From positions 1 to 48,776 of IMG/VR virus record IMGVR_UViG_3300000553_000064: DNA of 48,776 nucleotides; one strand, 5' to 3'. Of the stretch, positions 21,902 through 32,400 are shown piece after piece (within the stretch, counting starts at the first letter, position 1; every line of letters starts with the position of its first letter). The translations under genes and the position numbers were made by a program. The stretch comes from a virus. The notes under the pieces were generated by a model. The model saw nothing but the letters and a program-made list of their open reading frames with translations. It did not search any database and was not told the DNA's origin.

Positions 21902-24265
21902 ATGGCTGAACAAGATAATGAAACTACTGATAAAGTCTTAATGAAAAGACTTGCCGCTATTGGTATTAAAATAGAAGTAGACCAGGATTATATTAACAGA
22001 CAGTTAAGTCCTGCTATGGCAGCTATATCTAAAAAGCTTAATCAGTTATCCAAAGAAAGTAAAATGGATAAAGATGGTATCTTCGGAGCAAAGTTTTTTC
22101 AAGATAAAATTAAAAACATTACTGGTTTTGATTATGCTTTAATAAAATCTACTAAAACAATGCTTGGTTATGGTTTAGCTTCTAAAAATATGAACCTCGA
22201 TAATCAAGAATTTTATAAGAGTTTAGGCTTTATAAGTAAACGTTTAGTAGATGTAGCTTCTGGCATTACAAGCTGGAGAAAAGCCGGAAAAGATGCCTCT
22301 GACCAGTCAAAAGAAAATACTTCAAGTTTAGCTTCAGCATTAGCATCCGCAGATAAAAATAGTGCTACTTTAGCCGCTGGTCTTGATAGTGTTGCCACAT
22401 CAGCAGAAGTAGGAGCTGTTGAAATGGGAGCATTTGCTACAATCGCTACTGGTGGATTAGCATTATTAGCTGTAGCTATTGTTGGTATAGGCGCAGCATT
22501 CTATAAAATGTTTACTTCTGCGATGTCTGCGAGAGATGAGGTTAAAAAGTTTGACCAGCTTGTTGTGGGTATGGGACAACAAGGTGTCACGGAATTCGCT
22601 GGTAAATTACAGCATTTAAATAAAGCTGTTTGGGGATTAGGGTTTTCATTAGAACAAGTAAATGGTGTAGCTCTTGATTTTGCTAAAGCTGGTGTTAGTC
22701 TTGGTAGGTCTCTTGATACTAATTTAGTAAGTAGTGTATTAACTCTATCTGGAGCCACAGGAGTAGCTTCAAGTGAAATTAGTGGTTTATACGGCGAATT
22801 ATTAAAGTCTACAAAGATAAGTGTCGACTCCTTAACAGCAATGGGAGATACGTTTACAAGATTTAATCAAATAGTTTTTAACGGAACAAATCTTGGTCAA
22901 GTATCTTTTGCTACATTTAGAGAAGCTATATCGTCTTCTGCCAATGCTTTAGCTATTGCTACTGCGCGTGGAGAAGAGTTTACAAATAAAATGACAAGAG
23001 ATTTAATGTCATTGTCTGGATTAGCTACAACATTAAGTTTAAGTGTATCAGAACTTAACGGGCTATTCGAATCTGCTGGTAGTCTAATTTCTGACCAAAA
23101 CTCGCCATTTAGAGCTTTCTTGGCTATTTCTGGTGGTGCTAATATAAATCAAATGTTAACTAACCAATTTGATAAAACTGATGCTATGTTAAGAGGAATA
23201 ACCTTTTTACAAAACTTAAATAAGAGTTTTGGAGAAAATATCCAAATAACAGCACAAGTCGGTGCTCAATTATCTGGTTTATCAAAAGAAACTGTTATTA
23301 AAATGATAAATACAAGACAGGAAACTATTGCTGATATGTTAAAAGCTCAACAACAGTTAGCTACTATTCAAACAGATGCTACAAAAGATGCTTATGAGAA
23401 GGTTAATAGTGATTTAACTTCTGTATGGAATAGAATTAAAACAATGTTCGTAACGATGTTCCAAAACATTATAGGCGGTTCAAGTGGAATGAATAATTTA
23501 TTAAGAAGTGTTGAAAATTTCTTAATGGATTTCAAAAGAACTATGGAACATAGTGGTTTAATAGATACTCTTGGAAAAATAGTAGACAAAGTAGCTAATT
23601 GGTTAGGTAATAACCTTGTTCCAATGATTGAGTTTGTTAATAAAATGTTATCAGATTTTGCTAATCCAGATAAAAGTATCTGGAAAAGTCTTATAGATTT
23701 AATAGTAGATGGGTTAAAATTACCTTTTTTCCTATTAGGCCAATTAGCAGGAGAAGGGTTTAGAGCAGCAATGGCAAATGTCTCTATTTTAGGTATGAAA
23801 CCTTTTGCTGGAGCAAAAACAAGAGAACAAATAGAAAAAGAATTATCAGAAAAGCGCGGTGTTTTAGGTAGTTTTGGAAACAATAGAAATATGCCAGAAT
23901 TAGACTATTTAAATAATAGGTTATCTGCTATAGATAAACAAGAAGGGCAATTATCTAAATATAGTCCAGATACGGTGACGTATGGTAAAACAGCTGGCGG
24001 TAAAGTTGGTTTTATGACTGTTGGACAAAAAGAGTATGCTTTAGAAGAAGAAAAGAAAAGAGTTCAAGCTGAAATAGCTAAAAATACTAAATCTGCCGCA
24101 GAAGATATACATGAAGTAAGATTAGCGGTTTGTCATACTTCTGCTGATACTGAAAAGATAATAGGAACGCCTGCTAAACCAGTTAGTCCATTAGCTAAAC
24201 TTACTGTTAATAGCGCTGGAATGCCAAGTATGCCTGTATTGCATAGTATGGCTAATGGCGGTTAA
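21902..24265 (+). CDS. Tail tape measure protein
   Basis: A 787-residue, largely helical protein with a hydrophobic glycine-rich segment at about residues 175-203 (TIATGGLALLAVAIVGIGAA), characteristic of tape measure proteins, which fill the tube lumen, set tail length and help DNA cross the inner membrane. Heptad-rich regions flank it: QDYINRQLSPAMAAISKKLN near the start and AYEKVNSDLTSVWNRIKTMF at about 495-520. A second hydrophobic part occurs near 585-630 (LIDLIVDGLKLPFFLLGQLA). Length exceeds T4 gp29 (590). It lies after the hub gene and upstream of the gp26-like gene. No lysozyme or peptidase motif is seen. Confidence 0.78.
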   Translation: MAEQDNETTDKVLMKRLAAIGIKIEVDQDYINRQLSPAMAAISKKLNQLSKESKMDKDGIFGAKFFQDKIKNITGFDYALIKSTKTMLGYGLASKNMNLDNQEFYKSLGFISKRLVDVASGITSWRKAGKDASDQSKENTSSLASALASADKNSATLAAGLDSVATSAEVGAVEMGAFATIATGGLALLAVAIVGIGAAFYKMFTSAMSARDEVKKFDQLVVGMGQQGVTEFAGKLQHLNKAVWGLGFSLEQVNGVALDFAKAGVSLGRSLDTNLVSSVLTLSGATGVASSEISGLYGELLKSTKISVDSLTAMGDTFTRFNQIVFNGTNLGQVSFATFREAISSSANALAIATARGEEFTNKMTRDLMSLSGLATTLSLSVSELNGLFESAGSLISDQNSPFRAFLAISGGANINQMLTNQFDKTDAMLRGITFLQNLNKSFGENIQITAQVGAQLSGLSKETVIKMINTRQETIADMLKAQQQLATIQTDATKDAYEKVNSDLTSVWNRIKTMFVTMFQNIIGGSSGMNNLLRSVENFLMDFKRTMEHSGLIDTLGKIVDKVANWLGNNLVPMIEFVNKMLSDFANPDKSIWKSLIDLIVDGLKLPFFLLGQLAGEGFRAAMANVSILGMKPFAGAKTREQIEKELSEKRGVLGSFGNNRNMPELDYLNNRLSAIDKQEGQLSKYSPDTVTYGKTAGGKVGFMTVGQKEYALEEEKKRVQAEIAKNTKSAAEDIHEVRLAVCHTSADTEKIIGTPAKPVSPLAKLTVNSAGMPSMPVLHSMANGG

Positions 24266-27417: not shown

Positions 27418-28683
27418 ATGACAACTTCCTCATCTTCAGTTCCAGTTTTAGGCCCAGTATTATATTTTACATCAACAGATGGTTATTCTTACGATGTAGA
27501 TAATAGGCCATTATCTAATTTAGATACAAATATTAGACACATAAATACTTCTCTTGTTGGTATAGGATATGGTGAACACGCTTCTTTAGCTGGCGGCCAA
27601 TTAGCTCCTGGAACAGTAGTTTCTTTAGCACCAAATGGAGCTATTTTTTATCCAATTACAGTCCCCTCTGTTAATTTAATGCAGAATATTGTTGGCCTTG
27701 TTATTGGAGCTACAGACTCCGGTTTAAATAGAGTTATTTGGTCTTCAAAGCATTTAGATTTAGATGTTATTGGTTTAACTTCGATAACTGCTGGACAAGC
27801 TTCTGGTAGCTATTTAACTACGCAATCTGGTGGTAATGGAGCTATTGTTGTAAAAACAACACCAAATACAACAACAGACTATATTTTAGGTAGAATTAAA
27901 AACGGACCATATATCGAAGTTAATACAGCAGCAGAACTTATTGCTAATGATGCTTCTATAGCAGTAAATAATGCTGTATTAGATAATCATGCTAATATGT
28001 ATGGTTTTACAAGATTAAGAAACTTATTAATGTATATTGATATGGGAGTCACTCCTATGCAATATATTAAAAGAACTGTTAGACAGTCTGATTATTATGG
28101 AGTAAGCTCTGTTGTAAATCCAATGAACGTTGGGCTATCTTCTGATTTAACTACTATAGCTCCGCTGTCTTCCGACTCTACTGTCTATGGTAGCGCTCTT
28201 GATAATAAAGTAATCAAAGAAAGTTATACAAGTTATATAAATACTGGAGTTTCTCCATCAGATTCCGTATCTGTAAGTGGAGTAGCAAGCACTTGGTCTT
28301 CTATTGTATACGCAACTGCTCTTCCTTATAGTTATAATTCTCAAAACTACGAACTTCAACAAATTGCCTCTACTGGTGGATTTGATTATAGTTCTAACGT
28401 TCAGTTATTTAAAAACTTTCAAATTGATAAATACTATCAATATAATAAAACAATTTCTGCTAACCTTGTTGGTAAAATAGCAGCTACTGCTACAGTATTT
28501 AATCCATTAAATATTTCGGGCCAAGGTGGAGAAACTACCAGAACTATAGTTTGGGACTTCTTCTCTTATAGTATTTCTGGATTAGAAACATATAAATATA
28601 GAGTAATAACAAATGGACAGTCCTCTGAAACTGCTTTGTTATCCAGCACAGGAATATTCCCATCCGTATTAATAACGATTTAA
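27418..28683 (+). CDS. Tail/baseplate structural protein with DVDNRPL motif
   Basis: A 421-residue soluble protein. Near the N-terminus it carries YSYDVDNRPLSNLDTNI, almost the same motif as in the 865-residue protein at 29803 (YDVDVDNRPLLDIQNNI), which suggests a common docking segment on the baseplate. The rest is beta-rich with a helical stretch at about 175-230 (ELIANDASIAVNNAVLDNHA, then FTRLRNLLMYIDMGVTPMQY). No enzymatic motif is seen. It lies between the large beta protein and the gp26-like gene, and is likely a fibre base or baseplate periphery component. Confidence 0.65.
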   Translation: MTTSSSSVPVLGPVLYFTSTDGYSYDVDNRPLSNLDTNIRHINTSLVGIGYGEHASLAGGQLAPGTVVSLAPNGAIFYPITVPSVNLMQNIVGLVIGATDSGLNRVIWSSKHLDLDVIGLTSITAGQASGSYLTTQSGGNGAIVVKTTPNTTTDYILGRIKNGPYIEVNTAAELIANDASIAVNNAVLDNHANMYGFTRLRNLLMYIDMGVTPMQYIKRTVRQSDYYGVSSVVNPMNVGLSSDLTTIAPLSSDSTVYGSALDNKVIKESYTSYINTGVSPSDSVSVSGVASTWSSIVYATALPYSYNSQNYELQQIASTGGFDYSSNVQLFKNFQIDKYYQYNKTISANLVGKIAATATVFNPLNISGQGGETTRTIVWDFFSYSISGLETYKYRVITNGQSSETALLSSTGIFPSVLITI

Positions 28684-28693
28684 CAGAGTTTAC

Positions 28694-29482
28694 ATGTCAA
28701 ACATGATACAACCAGCTTTTGATTTAAAGACATTACTACCACCATTCCATACGCATAAACTACCATCAGCTGGCTTTTTCTCTGAAACTCCCGCAGAAAT
28801 AAATATTCGTGGTCTTACCATCAGAGAATTAAAGCATTTAACAGCTTCTGGAAGATTAGATAAGAAAGTATTTGACCAAACTATTGCTTCTTGCGTTAAA
28901 GAAACTATAGATTTTTCAAACTTATTATTACAAGATTATAATTATATTGTATATTTAACAAGACTTTATACTTCTGGTTCTGAAGCCAGTGGTGCCAAAC
29001 GGTGTGAAAATCCACAATGCGGTACTAAATACAATTTTAAATACGATTTAACAGAACACGCAGAGACAACATTTTTGGAAGAAGTTTTACCAATATCTAA
29101 AACTGTTATTTTACCAAGATTTAAAGAACGTTTTGGATATGAAGTAGTAGCAGAAGTTAAACCACTAACCCGTGGAGATTATCTAAAAATAGATAAAGCT
29201 ATTCAGCAAGCGGCAGACCAAGCAGCCAAGACTGGACAACCTATGTCCAGCTACCCTCTTACCGAGCTTCTAAAGGCCCATATCATGTCGATATCAGGTT
29301 TGCCTGCCCAAGTACCCAAAGAACAGCTTCTGGACTATTTAGACCCATCAGAGGCTAATTTAATAACATCAGCATACCCAGATGATAATTTTGGTTTATC
29401 TGGTAAGGCTATTACTATTTGTCCAGTTTGTAAGACAGAACAGGAGTTCGTGATTCCGTTCACGGACATCTTTTTTCAATAG
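28694..29482 (+). CDS. 26: Baseplate hub assembly protein, gp26-like, with zinc ribbon
   Basis: A 262-residue protein resembling the T4 gp26 baseplate family: the early motif HKLPSAGFFSE, then INIRGLTIRELKHLTASGRL and the helix VFDQTIASCVKETIDFSNLL. Four cysteines, C104-x4-C109 in RCENPQCGTKY and C243-x2-C246 in CPVCKTEQ, form a likely zinc ribbon split across the chain. Such proteins act in baseplate/hub assembly. The 0-frame stops at 29480, just after six T, while a coding-like frame continues in +1 to 29744, so an extended product made by frameshifting is likely (see next entry). The ATG at 28694 is preceded by AGAG; a second ATG three codons later is possible. Confidence 0.68.
   Translation: MSNMIQPAFDLKTLLPPFHTHKLPSAGFFSETPAEINIRGLTIRELKHLTASGRLDKKVFDQTIASCVKETIDFSNLLLQDYNYIVYLTRLYTSGSEASGAKRCENPQCGTKYNFKYDLTEHAETTFLEEVLPISKTVILPRFKERFGYEVVAEVKPLTRGDYLKIDKAIQQAADQAAKTGQPMSSYPLTELLKAHIMSISGLPAQVPKEQLLDYLDPSEANLITSAYPDDNFGLSGKAITICPVCKTEQEFVIPFTDIFFQ
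29471..29477 (+). other. Candidate +1 (or -2) programmed frameshift site
   Basis: The 0-frame reads ATC TTT TTT CAA TAG. Skipping one T, or moving back two bases, on the T6 run (29471-29476) leads into TTC AAT AGT and 89 open codons. The stop TAG follows one codon after the run, as is common at programmed sites. A one-base homopolymer error would give the same picture. Confidence 0.5.
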
Positions 29483-29744
29483 TTTCTTAAACCTTGATAT
29501 TCCTATTACCCAAGAGTACTATAACGTTATCGAATCAATTTTATTAGAGTTTTTTCATAATGGATTAACATATAAAGATATAATACAACTTCAAGTTTTT
29601 TTAAGAGTAGTTTTAAAAATGGAGTTTATGTATACAGATTTTGCTACACCAATAGATTTTATGAATTACTATAGTGTAGCAGAAGAGATTGAAAGAAAAA
29701 AACAAGAAGAAATAGAAAACAGCAAAAGAGAGCAATATAAATAA
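29475..29744 (+). CDS. +1-frame extension of the gp26-like protein
   Basis: Eighty-nine codons open in the +1 frame relative to the gp26-like gene, ending at TAA 29742-29744. The product starts FNSFLNLDIPITQEYYNVIE, continues with helical segments (LTYKDIIQLQVFLRVVLKME, DFMNYYSVAEEIERKKQEEI) and ends in a charged coil. The frame has no ATG, GTG or TTG until an ATG halfway (residue 49), and a TGA closes it upstream at 29448-29450, so independent initiation would lose the best-looking part. A frameshift on the T6 run would give a fusion of about 349 residues. This is the arrangement of tail assembly chaperones (lambda G/GT, Mu 41/42). A sequencing indel or an ancient split gene are the alternatives. 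The 307-base interval has no other gene. Confidence 0.6.
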   Translation, partial: FNSFLNLDIPITQEYYNVIESILLEFFHNGLTYKDIIQLQVFLRVVLKMEFMYTDFATPIDFMNYYSVAEEIERKKQEEIENSKREQYK

Positions 29745-29778: not shown

Positions 29779-29791
29779 AATTAATTTTGAG
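29779..29791 (+). promoter_or_regulatory. AATTAAsTT-type box upstream of the 865-residue gene
   Basis: AATTAATTTTGAG lies after the hairpin and 11 bases before the ATG at 29803. The G/C at position 7 of the box is T here. Confidence 0.3.
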
Positions 29792-29802
29792 TGAGACTTT
29801 TC

Positions 29803-32400
29803 ATGCCAATAAATCTAAAACCTGTTAATGTTTATCAAGAGTTTGAACCATACGATGTTGATGTAGACAATAGACCACTATTAGATATACAAAACAATAT
29901 TCAAGAAATAGTAGGTTTATTAGAAAACTCTGGCTTTTATTCTGAAATAGCGGCAGATCCTTCTCAACTACCGGCTGGCGGATTTTCTACATTTACTTGT
30001 GCTTGTATTGGTACAAATAGCTTATTAATCCCAATAGACATATCTAAATCTATTATTGAAATTGATTATACTACCTTGCCAATTGTATTAATTCTTGGAT
30101 ATAATATAGATACAAACACTTATCAATGTCTATCCTTTTCTGCTGGCATAACTTTAACCAGCAAATTCGCATCCTTTGTTTCTGGTTCTCAAGGAAGATT
30201 ATTAAAAGTTGGCCCTGGCGGTGTTTTAGTTGACCAAATGTACTATGATTTGGCTTATGCTTCGTCTGGTTATCAATCTTTATACGTTGGTAAAATATTA
30301 GGCCCTAATAGTATAGTTTTTGGTGGAAACCAAGTTAGTATTTTAGGAAATAATTTTTATTTAGCTAAAAATAGAGACGACTCGACTTCTGGATTAATAA
30401 CAGTTCAAAGAGCTAATTCTACTTCGAACACAGTATTTAAGTCTGTAAACATTAATGATGTAGGCTCTTCTTATAATTATGCTGAATATGTTAATAGTTA
30501 TGGAGCTATAAGTTCTAATTCTTATTCTGTACCAATATATTTTTCTTCTTCGGAATTAGATTTTGACCAATCTACTGGATTATTTTTAGCTCCGGTATTA
30601 GAAGCTCAACTTAATGAAATACACTTTTTAACCCCTTCCATAACTACTTTCACAGGGGCTTCTCAAACATATTTAACAGCTGGTATAAATGTAAGAAGTT
30701 TATTAGATTTTACTTCTTTAAACTTAATACATACTTCAACATATTCAAATAGCATATCAGAATTAACACAAGATATTAGCACTAAACTTATTTTTCAAGA
30801 TAGAGTTTCCTCTACTCCAGTTCCTATTGGTTTACAATTTAATAATACTCCTATAACTGTAGGAGATAAAATACTTGCTTCAACAAACCAACCAGCTAAT
30901 CTATTACCAATTACTGATACTACCGGTATTACTATTGCTGATTATTTTAACACCGCCGGTGGTTATATTGGCGGTGTCCAGGATAATTCTGCTCTAACTA
31001 CTACAAGGAATACAGTATCACAAGACCAATTAATACAATCAAATGCTAATTTTACTACAAACGGCATAAATGATTATTCTAACAGTTTTACTTTACTAAT
31101 TTCTGCTAAATCAAATACGTCTATACCATCAAATATTGCTCTTTCTTCTGATGGATATATTAATTTAAGTTCTGGTAATGGTATTTTAACAAACCAAAAA
31201 AATCCTGTATTAGATGCTGAACTAACTTCAAAAAAATATGTAGATACTCAGGTATTGAGTATAGCATCTTCTGCTAATACAAAAGTTCCTTTAACTGGAA
31301 CAACTAATAAAGACGCCTCTGGAAATATATCTACTGCTCCAATTACAGGTAAACTTGATTTTGATGTCACTAACAGCCAAATATCAACTTCACAAGTATT
31401 AGTATTTAATAGTATAAATACAGCAGATATTTTATCCGCAAATCCCATTAATGTTTTTCAATCTGATGGGACAGATTATCAAATTGTAAAGGTAGGAAAT
31501 ACTGCTTGGAACACATCAAACAGCGTTTTAACTAATTTACAAGGAATTAGAGAAGCCGTAAGTAAAGATTTTTTATACAGTTATTACGAACAAGTTTCTT
31601 CAACTGGAGCTTTTGTACAAACATCTCCAGCTAATCCAACTATACCACAAAATATAACTGGACAAATAACTATTACAGGCGCTCCTGGAGATACTGGTGT
31701 CCAACTTGAGTTAGAAAATGTGTTGTCTGATAGTGTTAATTTAAGGTTAACTACTACAACAGGCTCCCCAGTTGATTTTACTATGGATAATAGTGCTTTA
31801 ACTATAAGTTCTCCATTAGCTCCAGTATTATTAACAAGAGCTTCTGTAAATACTGATGCCGCATTATCTATCCCAACAAAAGGTTATGTAGATGCCGCAG
31901 TTGCTTCCGTAACAGCCGCTACAGTAACTCCGTTTTATGCTATTTGGAACCAAAAAAATGCTCCTGGTTCTCTTATAACTGTAGGTAGTATTACGTATTC
32001 TTGTGCTTTTGCTACTTCTGGAACAGACGCTGGAGCAGATACGCAAACTAATTTATCTTCGTTATTTACACCAGGAGCTGGTGGTTTACTATATAAAGCA
32101 TCTAATGCTCATCCAATAGTATTACAAATAAACGCTGGAGCTTCTTGGTATCAACAGGTAGGTCCTGGAGGCGGAAACCAGCAGTGGAGAACAAGTTGTA
32201 ATATTTTAGTAAATACTACTATTGTTGCGTCATCCGAGGAACAATTTTCTGGTTCACTTTCCGCAAGACCAACCTCTTCTGTATCATCTATTGTAGTATT
32301 AAATCCTGGAGATACGTTAGTTGTTGGTGCTAAAGTTAATAGCGATTTAACTGGAACAAACGCTATTGACCAATATTTAAGTATGGCAAGAATAGGATAA
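29803..32400 (+). CDS. Tail fibre-like protein with DVDNRPL motif and C-terminal tip domain
   Basis: An 865-residue protein. The N-terminus holds the DVDNRPL docking motif also seen in the product at 27418. The middle has fibre-shaft phrases such as LTSKKYVDTQVLSIASSANT and, near residue 690, AALSIPTKGYVDAAVASVTA, typical of trimeric fibres. The last 150 or so residues (from FYAIWNQKNAPGSLITVGSI to the end) look like a compact beta domain with LLYKASNAHPIVLQINAGAS and VSSIVVLNPGDTLVVGAKVN, in the style of TNF/C1q-like fibre tips. It probably contributes to host contact. The ATG at 29803 is preferred; a GTG 12 bases earlier would place the start inside the GAGTGAG ribosome site. Confidence 0.7.
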   Translation: MPINLKPVNVYQEFEPYDVDVDNRPLLDIQNNIQEIVGLLENSGFYSEIAADPSQLPAGGFSTFTCACIGTNSLLIPIDISKSIIEIDYTTLPIVLILGYNIDTNTYQCLSFSAGITLTSKFASFVSGSQGRLLKVGPGGVLVDQMYYDLAYASSGYQSLYVGKILGPNSIVFGGNQVSILGNNFYLAKNRDDSTSGLITVQRANSTSNTVFKSVNINDVGSSYNYAEYVNSYGAISSNSYSVPIYFSSSELDFDQSTGLFLAPVLEAQLNEIHFLTPSITTFTGASQTYLTAGINVRSLLDFTSLNLIHTSTYSNSISELTQDISTKLIFQDRVSSTPVPIGLQFNNTPITVGDKILASTNQPANLLPITDTTGITIADYFNTAGGYIGGVQDNSALTTTRNTVSQDQLIQSNANFTTNGINDYSNSFTLLISAKSNTSIPSNIALSSDGYINLSSGNGILTNQKNPVLDAELTSKKYVDTQVLSIASSANTKVPLTGTTNKDASGNISTAPITGKLDFDVTNSQISTSQVLVFNSINTADILSANPINVFQSDGTDYQIVKVGNTAWNTSNSVLTNLQGIREAVSKDFLYSYYEQVSSTGAFVQTSPANPTIPQNITGQITITGAPGDTGVQLELENVLSDSVNLRLTTTTGSPVDFTMDNSALTISSPLAPVLLTRASVNTDAALSIPTKGYVDAAVASVTAATVTPFYAIWNQKNAPGSLITVGSITYSCAFATSGTDAGADTQTNLSSLFTPGAGGLLYKASNAHPIVLQINAGASWYQQVGPGGGNQQWRTSCNILVNTTIVASSEEQFSGSLSARPTSSVSSIVVLNPGDTLVVGAKVNSDLTGTNAIDQYLSMARIG

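What the first reader, a model, noticed from the sequence alone, without database searches (positions are those of the whole stretch)
29451..29744. Candidate +1/-2 programmed frameshift extends the gp26-like baseplate protein
The gp26-like frame stops at 29480 one codon after six T. The +1 frame is open from 29451 to 29744 and encodes 89 residues that read like protein (helices, charged coil end) without any start codon in its first half. A shift on ATC TTT TTT CAA gives a 349-residue fusion. Established: long-tailed phages often make tail assembly chaperones by frameshifting (lambda G/GT -1, Mu 41/42 -2). A T4-type gp26 homologue doing so would be new to me and would link gp26 to chaperone function. 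A homopolymer sequencing error must be excluded.
Basis: partly seen in the sequence, partly recalled or inferred. Interest (0 to 1): 0.78.

Follow-up and report, generated by a model that had tools for sequence, protein, structure and literature searches.

The report
Frameshifted tail assembly chaperone gene
A tail-building helper gene of an uncultured phage probably makes a long second version of its protein when ribosomes slip forward one base on a conserved run of Ts, and relatives of the gene with the same or a backward slip occur throughout distant relatives of phage T4.

Summary
The gp26-like ORF (28694-29482, 262 aa) stops one codon after TTTTTTC. An 88-codon +1 frame follows, with no ATG/GTG/TTG in its first half. 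The T6 run is identical in three other IMG/VR assemblies. A 49%-identical relative has the same TTTTTTC, a stop one codon later, and a 41%-identical extension in the same +1 frame. A homopolymer error is therefore excluded in practice.

The extension is a C-terminal domain shared by a wide gp26 family. In 80/80 cyanophage-type loci it lies in the -1 frame behind a canonical T_TTT_TTC. In 26/26 SP-15-type and 74/75 Microcystis/marine-type loci it lies in +1, mostly behind TTT_TTT_C, TTC_TTT_C or TTT_TTT_TGG. T4 itself keeps short and long forms as two paralogous genes, 26 and 51. Members whose T run is broken argue for +1 against -2.

Best reading: a lambda G/GT-type tail assembly chaperone made by +1 programmed frameshifting. 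That genes 26/51 are the T4-like chaperones, with poly-T frameshifting in some groups, was already published (Vladimirov 2022). New here: this lineage, and a change of shift direction inside one gene family. Frameshifting was not measured; all evidence is comparative.

The parts
28694..29482 (+). Zero-frame ORF, short chaperone form (TAC-N, T4 gp26-like), 262 aa with two Cys pairs
   Evidence: ORF; PHROG_150 E 8e-9; PF12322 E 2e-5; AF2 model pLDDT 88 matching SP-15 and VH7D hub proteins
29471..29477 (+). Proposed slip site TTT TTT C (zero-frame phase), +1 shift UUU to UUC
   Evidence: Identical in L001-L003; same codons in L017; TTT TTT C or TTC TTT C in most SP-15-type homologues
29480..29482 (+). 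Zero-frame stop codon TAG, one codon after the slip site
   Evidence: TAA at the same place in L017
29478..29744 (+). +1-frame C-terminal domain (TAC-C, gp51-like tail), 88 codons plus TAA
   Evidence: 41% identical in L017 in the same frame; profile match to SP-15-type extension, E 6e-6 single comparison, probability 85
29446..29467 (+). Predicted 8-bp RNA hairpin just upstream of the T run; possible local stimulator, role uncertain
   Evidence: -11.4 kcal/mol, z -2.8; L017 upstream sequence does not appear able to form it (by eye)

Best explanation
The gene is the tail assembly chaperone (TAC) of a T4-related contractile phage. Most ribosomes stop at 29482 and make the short form (TAC-N, 262 aa). 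A minority slip +1 at UUU_UUU_C: the peptidyl-tRNA-Phe moves from UUU to the overlapping, better-paired UUC. They then read the downstream frame and make the 349-aa long form (TAC-NC). By analogy with lambda gpG/gpGT, TAC-N coats the tape-measure protein and the C-terminal domain recruits the tail tube. Shown by sequence: the family, the conserved out-of-frame domain, the conserved slip site and the same frame offset in a 49% relative. Inferred: that shifting happens, its efficiency, +1 rather than -2, and the chaperone role (from homology to T4 gp26/gp51).
For: Same site and offset in L017. [quoted passage not shown] C-terminal domains related between groups (hhalign probability 85-97). T4 gp26 and gp51 are paralogues (E 2e-6) and the C-terminus of gp51 resembles the cyanophage extension (E 2e-4), so T4 encodes the short and long forms separately. 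In several homologues the gene lies directly before the tape-measure gene. Third codon positions vary most in the +1 domain.
Against: No measurement of shifting. The window's C-terminal domain is only weakly linked to the other groups (one profile comparison). The next genes in this phage are not a tape-measure gene. The downstream RNA shows no unusual structure.
Confidence: 0.85

Rival explanations
1. The shift is -2 (as proposed for Mu), giving a 350-residue product with one extra Phe.
For: Six T in a row would allow re-pairing two bases back in the window, L017 and L012.
Against: Homologues with the same frame offset and TTC TTT CGT, TTT CTT TGG or TTT CTA cannot re-pair after -2.
Confidence: 0.07
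2. The second frame is translated on its own by re-initiation after the stop, at a non-standard start such as AUU.
For: T4 gene 26 has an annotated internal product 26', reported from memory to start at AUU; ATT codons occur at positions 7 and 9 of the extension. Many cyanophage-type loci have an ATG near the stop.
Against: No standard start in the window's extension before codon 47, none conserved with L017; it would not explain the conserved T-rich site.
Confidence: 0.04
3. RNA polymerase slippage on the T run makes mRNAs with one T fewer or two more.
For: A homopolymer at the frame break, with a hairpin just before it.
Against: Six T is short for slippage, and homologues with interrupted runs keep the same offset.
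Confidence: 0.03
4. Sequencing or assembly error, or a broken gene.
For: Homopolymer at a frame break.
Against: Identical in four assemblies, and the same break at the same codon in a 49%-identical relative and across the family.
Confidence: 0.01

Closest known systems
T4 gp26 / gp51, identified as tail assembly chaperones (Vladimirov, Gautam, Davidson 2022, Virology 566:9-15; read only through citing papers)
   Same: Homologous N-terminal protein; short and long forms; long form carries an extra C-terminal domain.
   Different: T4 has two separate genes and no shift; here one gene with an out-of-frame extension.
gp26-gp51 locus of cyanophages and KVP40 (poly-T -1 site in TAC-N genes of T4-like phages, as cited in PMC12846349)
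   Same: Same gene family, T-rich site at the end of TAC-N, homologous type of extension.
   Different: -1 frame and T_TTT_TTC phase there; +1 frame and TTT_TTT_C phase here.
Lambda gpG/gpGT (and the Mu 41/42 type)
   Same: Short and frameshift-extended chaperone forms.
   Different: -1 (lambda) or -2 (Mu); no sequence relation was tested; different tail type in lambda.
HF1-group haloviruses, proposed +1 at TTT-CGC before the tape-measure gene (PMC7230728)
   Same: Contractile-tailed virus, proposed +1 shift at UUU_C in the tail chaperone gene.
   Different: Archaeal virus; homology of the proteins was not tested; in the window the next codon is CAA.

Membership tests
gp26/gp51-type (T4-type) tail assembly chaperones | N-terminal protein homologous to T4-like gp26 | tested here: met
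   PHROG_150 8e-9, PF12322 2e-5; structural match to VH7D and SP-15 hub proteins
gp26/gp51-type (T4-type) tail assembly chaperones | Long form with a gp51-like C-terminal domain | tested here: inconclusive
   Window+L017 extension matches the SP-15-type extension at probability 85, but not cyanophage or T4 gp51 directly
gp26/gp51-type (T4-type) tail assembly chaperones | Gene next to the tape-measure gene | tested here: not met
   Neighbours at 27418 and 29791 are not tape-measure-like; this is common but not required, since T4 gene 26 is not adjacent to gene 29 either
Programmed +1 ribosomal frameshift | Conserved slip site allowing re-pairing one base forward | tested here: met
   UUU to UUC in the window, L017, L012 and most SP-15-type loci
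Programmed +1 ribosomal frameshift | Fusion product made in cells | not testable with these tools
   Needs a reporter or mass spectrometry
Programmed -2 frameshift (Mu type) | tRNA re-pairing two bases back is possible in all members with this frame offset | tested here: not met
   Fails in GXN1, L128, L138, L145, immuto and LR756508; met in the window itself

The most novel reading that the evidence does not exclude
Within one gene family the direction of programmed frameshifting has changed: a U-rich site at the same place in the gene gives a -1 shift in cyanophages and KVP40 (U_UUU_UUC) and a +1 shift in the window's lineage and in SP-15-type and Microcystis/marine-type phages (UUU_UUU_C, UUU_UUU_UGG), while T4 has dispensed with shifting by keeping two paralogous genes.
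Probability: 0.7. Interest if true: 0.58.

Novelty: new variant of a known kind. Interest (0 to 1): 0.45.

Why it matters
A standard review lists T4 as the exception to G-T frameshifting among long-tailed phages (PMC5009743). The comparison supports the view that the wider T4 family uses the same trick, here in two directions, and that T4's two 'hub' genes are an alternative, duplicated state. It explains the truncated 'gp51' genes and apparent gaps annotated after gp26 in many phages, and gives a natural series for asking how a shift site can change from -1 to +1. It also supports treating these proteins, usually annotated as baseplate hub, as assembly chaperones.

Tried and rejected
The scan of GTDB genome contigs with the gp26 profile found no relatives. 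Sequence and fold searches against the PDB gave nothing relevant; the only sequence hit is a zinc finger. Downstream RNA structure: none significant at the three sites folded. Rfam was not searched, for want of a structured candidate. The fused protein could not be read for folding with one four-letter codon (TTTC), because a second TTTC lies in the +1 frame; only the zero-frame part was folded. L004/L027, a 77% relative, ends before the site. Six of the seven -1 calls concern loci whose two frames are both long; scoring with the domain HMM placed the extension in +1 in all that were scored, leaving only L201 in -1. The Vladimirov 2022 text is not held.

Full report
Observation. The gp26-like ORF runs from 28694 to 29482 and ends GAC ATC TTT TTT CAA TAG. 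The +1 frame is open from 29454 to 29744, with no ATG, GTG or TTG before codon 47 after the shift. A +1 shift gives 349 residues.

Not an error. Three other IMG/VR contigs from differently numbered datasets carry the identical site; they are 99.99-100% identical to the window over 6.8 kb. A contig only 49% identical in the protein (L017) has GAC GTA TTT TTT CTA TAA at exactly the same codons, followed by a +1 frame 41% identical to the window's extension. Between the two, third codon positions of the extension vary most and second positions least (38, 26 and 43 mismatches in 84 codons for positions 1, 2 and 3), as expected of coding sequence.

Family. The N-terminal part matches PHROG_150 'baseplate hub' and, just above its cut-off, Pfam T4_baseplate. 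The window's neighbours include terminase, capsid, sheath, sheath stabiliser and baseplate wedge proteins. An AlphaFold2 model (pLDDT 88) matches predicted structures of the SP-15 and VH7D hub proteins and nothing in the PDB.

Following the homologues. A profile search found a remote relative (L012, E 4e-13) with GAG TTT TTT CGC and a +1-frame domain directly before a long ORF that looks like a tape-measure gene (by eye). Isolated phages show the same architecture: SP-15, LIS04, GXN1, immuto, Mel-JY01 and RM378 with a +1 domain; KVP40, cyanophages, PA5oct and Atu_ph07 with a -1 domain. In the annotated records the extension is mostly missing or appears as a short gene: 'gp51' in cyanophages, of which the literature notes that it is only about 20% of the usual length (PMC3037559), or 'hypothetical protein'.

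Census. I collected 80 cyanophage-type loci, an SP-15-type set and a Mel-JY01-type set, and scored each frame with an HMM of the extension. The HMMs were built from the same loci in the assumed frame, so the count checks consistency and is not an independent discovery. The domain lies in -1 in 80/80, in +1 in 26/26, and in +1 in 74/75. The site is nnT TTT TTC in 80/80 of the first group, always one codon before the stop and with the preceding codon always ending in T, although Phe codons elsewhere in those ORFs are 692 TTT to 237 TTC. It is mostly TTT TTT CGN or TTC TTT CGN in the second group and TTT TTT TGG in the third (62 of 75). TTTTTT is rare elsewhere in these ORFs (27 starts in about 130 kb). 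Loci within a group are related, so these counts are not independent events.

Direction. For the window alone +1 and -2 cannot be told apart. In same-offset homologues with TTC TTT CGT (GXN1, L128, L138, L145), TTT CTT TGG (immuto) or TTT CTA (LR756508), two-base backward re-pairing fails, while UUU to UUC or CUU to UUU one base forward works. UUU_C is a known kind of +1 site: PMC7230728 cites UCC_UUU_CGU in influenza A virus and proposes TTT-CGC for the HF1 haloviruses' chaperone gene. Hence +1 is the most likely mechanism.

Function. T4 gp26 and gp51 are paralogues (BLASTP E 2e-6), and the end of gp51 resembles the cyanophage extension (E 2e-4 in a single comparison). In T4 the short and long forms are therefore two genes, and elsewhere one gene with an out-of-frame extension. 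This is the lambda G/GT arrangement, in which both products chaperone the tape-measure protein (PMC5009743). T4 gp26 and gp51 are listed as hub assembly chaperones (PMC3004832). For the window the chaperone role is inferred from homology. One typical feature is absent: the tape-measure gene is not next door.

Prior art. Vladimirov, Gautam and Davidson (Virology 2022) identified these genes as the tail assembly chaperones of T4-like phages. I could not read it. Papers citing it say that some T4-like phages carry separate short and long genes (PMC10885494) and that poly-T sequences serve as -1 signals in T4-like TAC-N genes (PMC12846349). From memory, its abstract also says that frameshifting is conserved in several T4-like groups. 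The general finding is thus known. What I did not find described in the papers held is the +1 version in this family and the change of direction; full-text searches combining gp26, gp51, hub assembly or tail assembly chaperone with frameshift gave no such report.

Verdict. It is a new lineage and a +1 variant of a known kind of recoded tail chaperone. All evidence is comparative; the shift itself has not been measured.

Noticed in passing
29446-29467: A stable 8-bp hairpin (z -2.8) ends 3 bases before the T6 run; it looks like an intrinsic terminator or an upstream frameshift stimulator. It seems absent from L017.
   Followed up: partly
27418-28683 and 29791-32400: The genes on either side of the chaperone gene both carry a DVDNRPL motif near the N-terminus, as if related to each other.
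   Followed up: no
21902-24265; L239 6331-13290: Helix-rich ORFs of 787 and about 2,320 aa without family matches are candidates for the missing tape-measure protein; the second lies on the opposite strand in a 127-kb contig that contains the window region.
   Followed up: partly
L142-L144, L148, L149, L155: In this subgroup the T run is lost and the end reads TTA TTT AAT CCC AGT or TTC AAT CCC AGT with the extension still in +1, which suggests that the slip site moved, possibly to CCC_A.
   Followed up: no
L201: The only one of 75 Mel-JY01-type loci with the extension in -1 (AAT TTC TTC TGG): either a real change of direction or an indel error.
   Followed up: no
L039, L041, L042 (gp51): Annotated cyanophage gp51 starts about 50-90 bases after the gp26 stop, but the -1 frame is already open at the slip site, so the annotated genes look truncated; this would explain the short gp51 noted in PMC3037559.
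   Followed up: yes
L030 5803-6429 and 6480-7229: T4 genes 26 and 51 are divergently oriented paralogues (BLASTP E 2e-6).
   Followed up: yes
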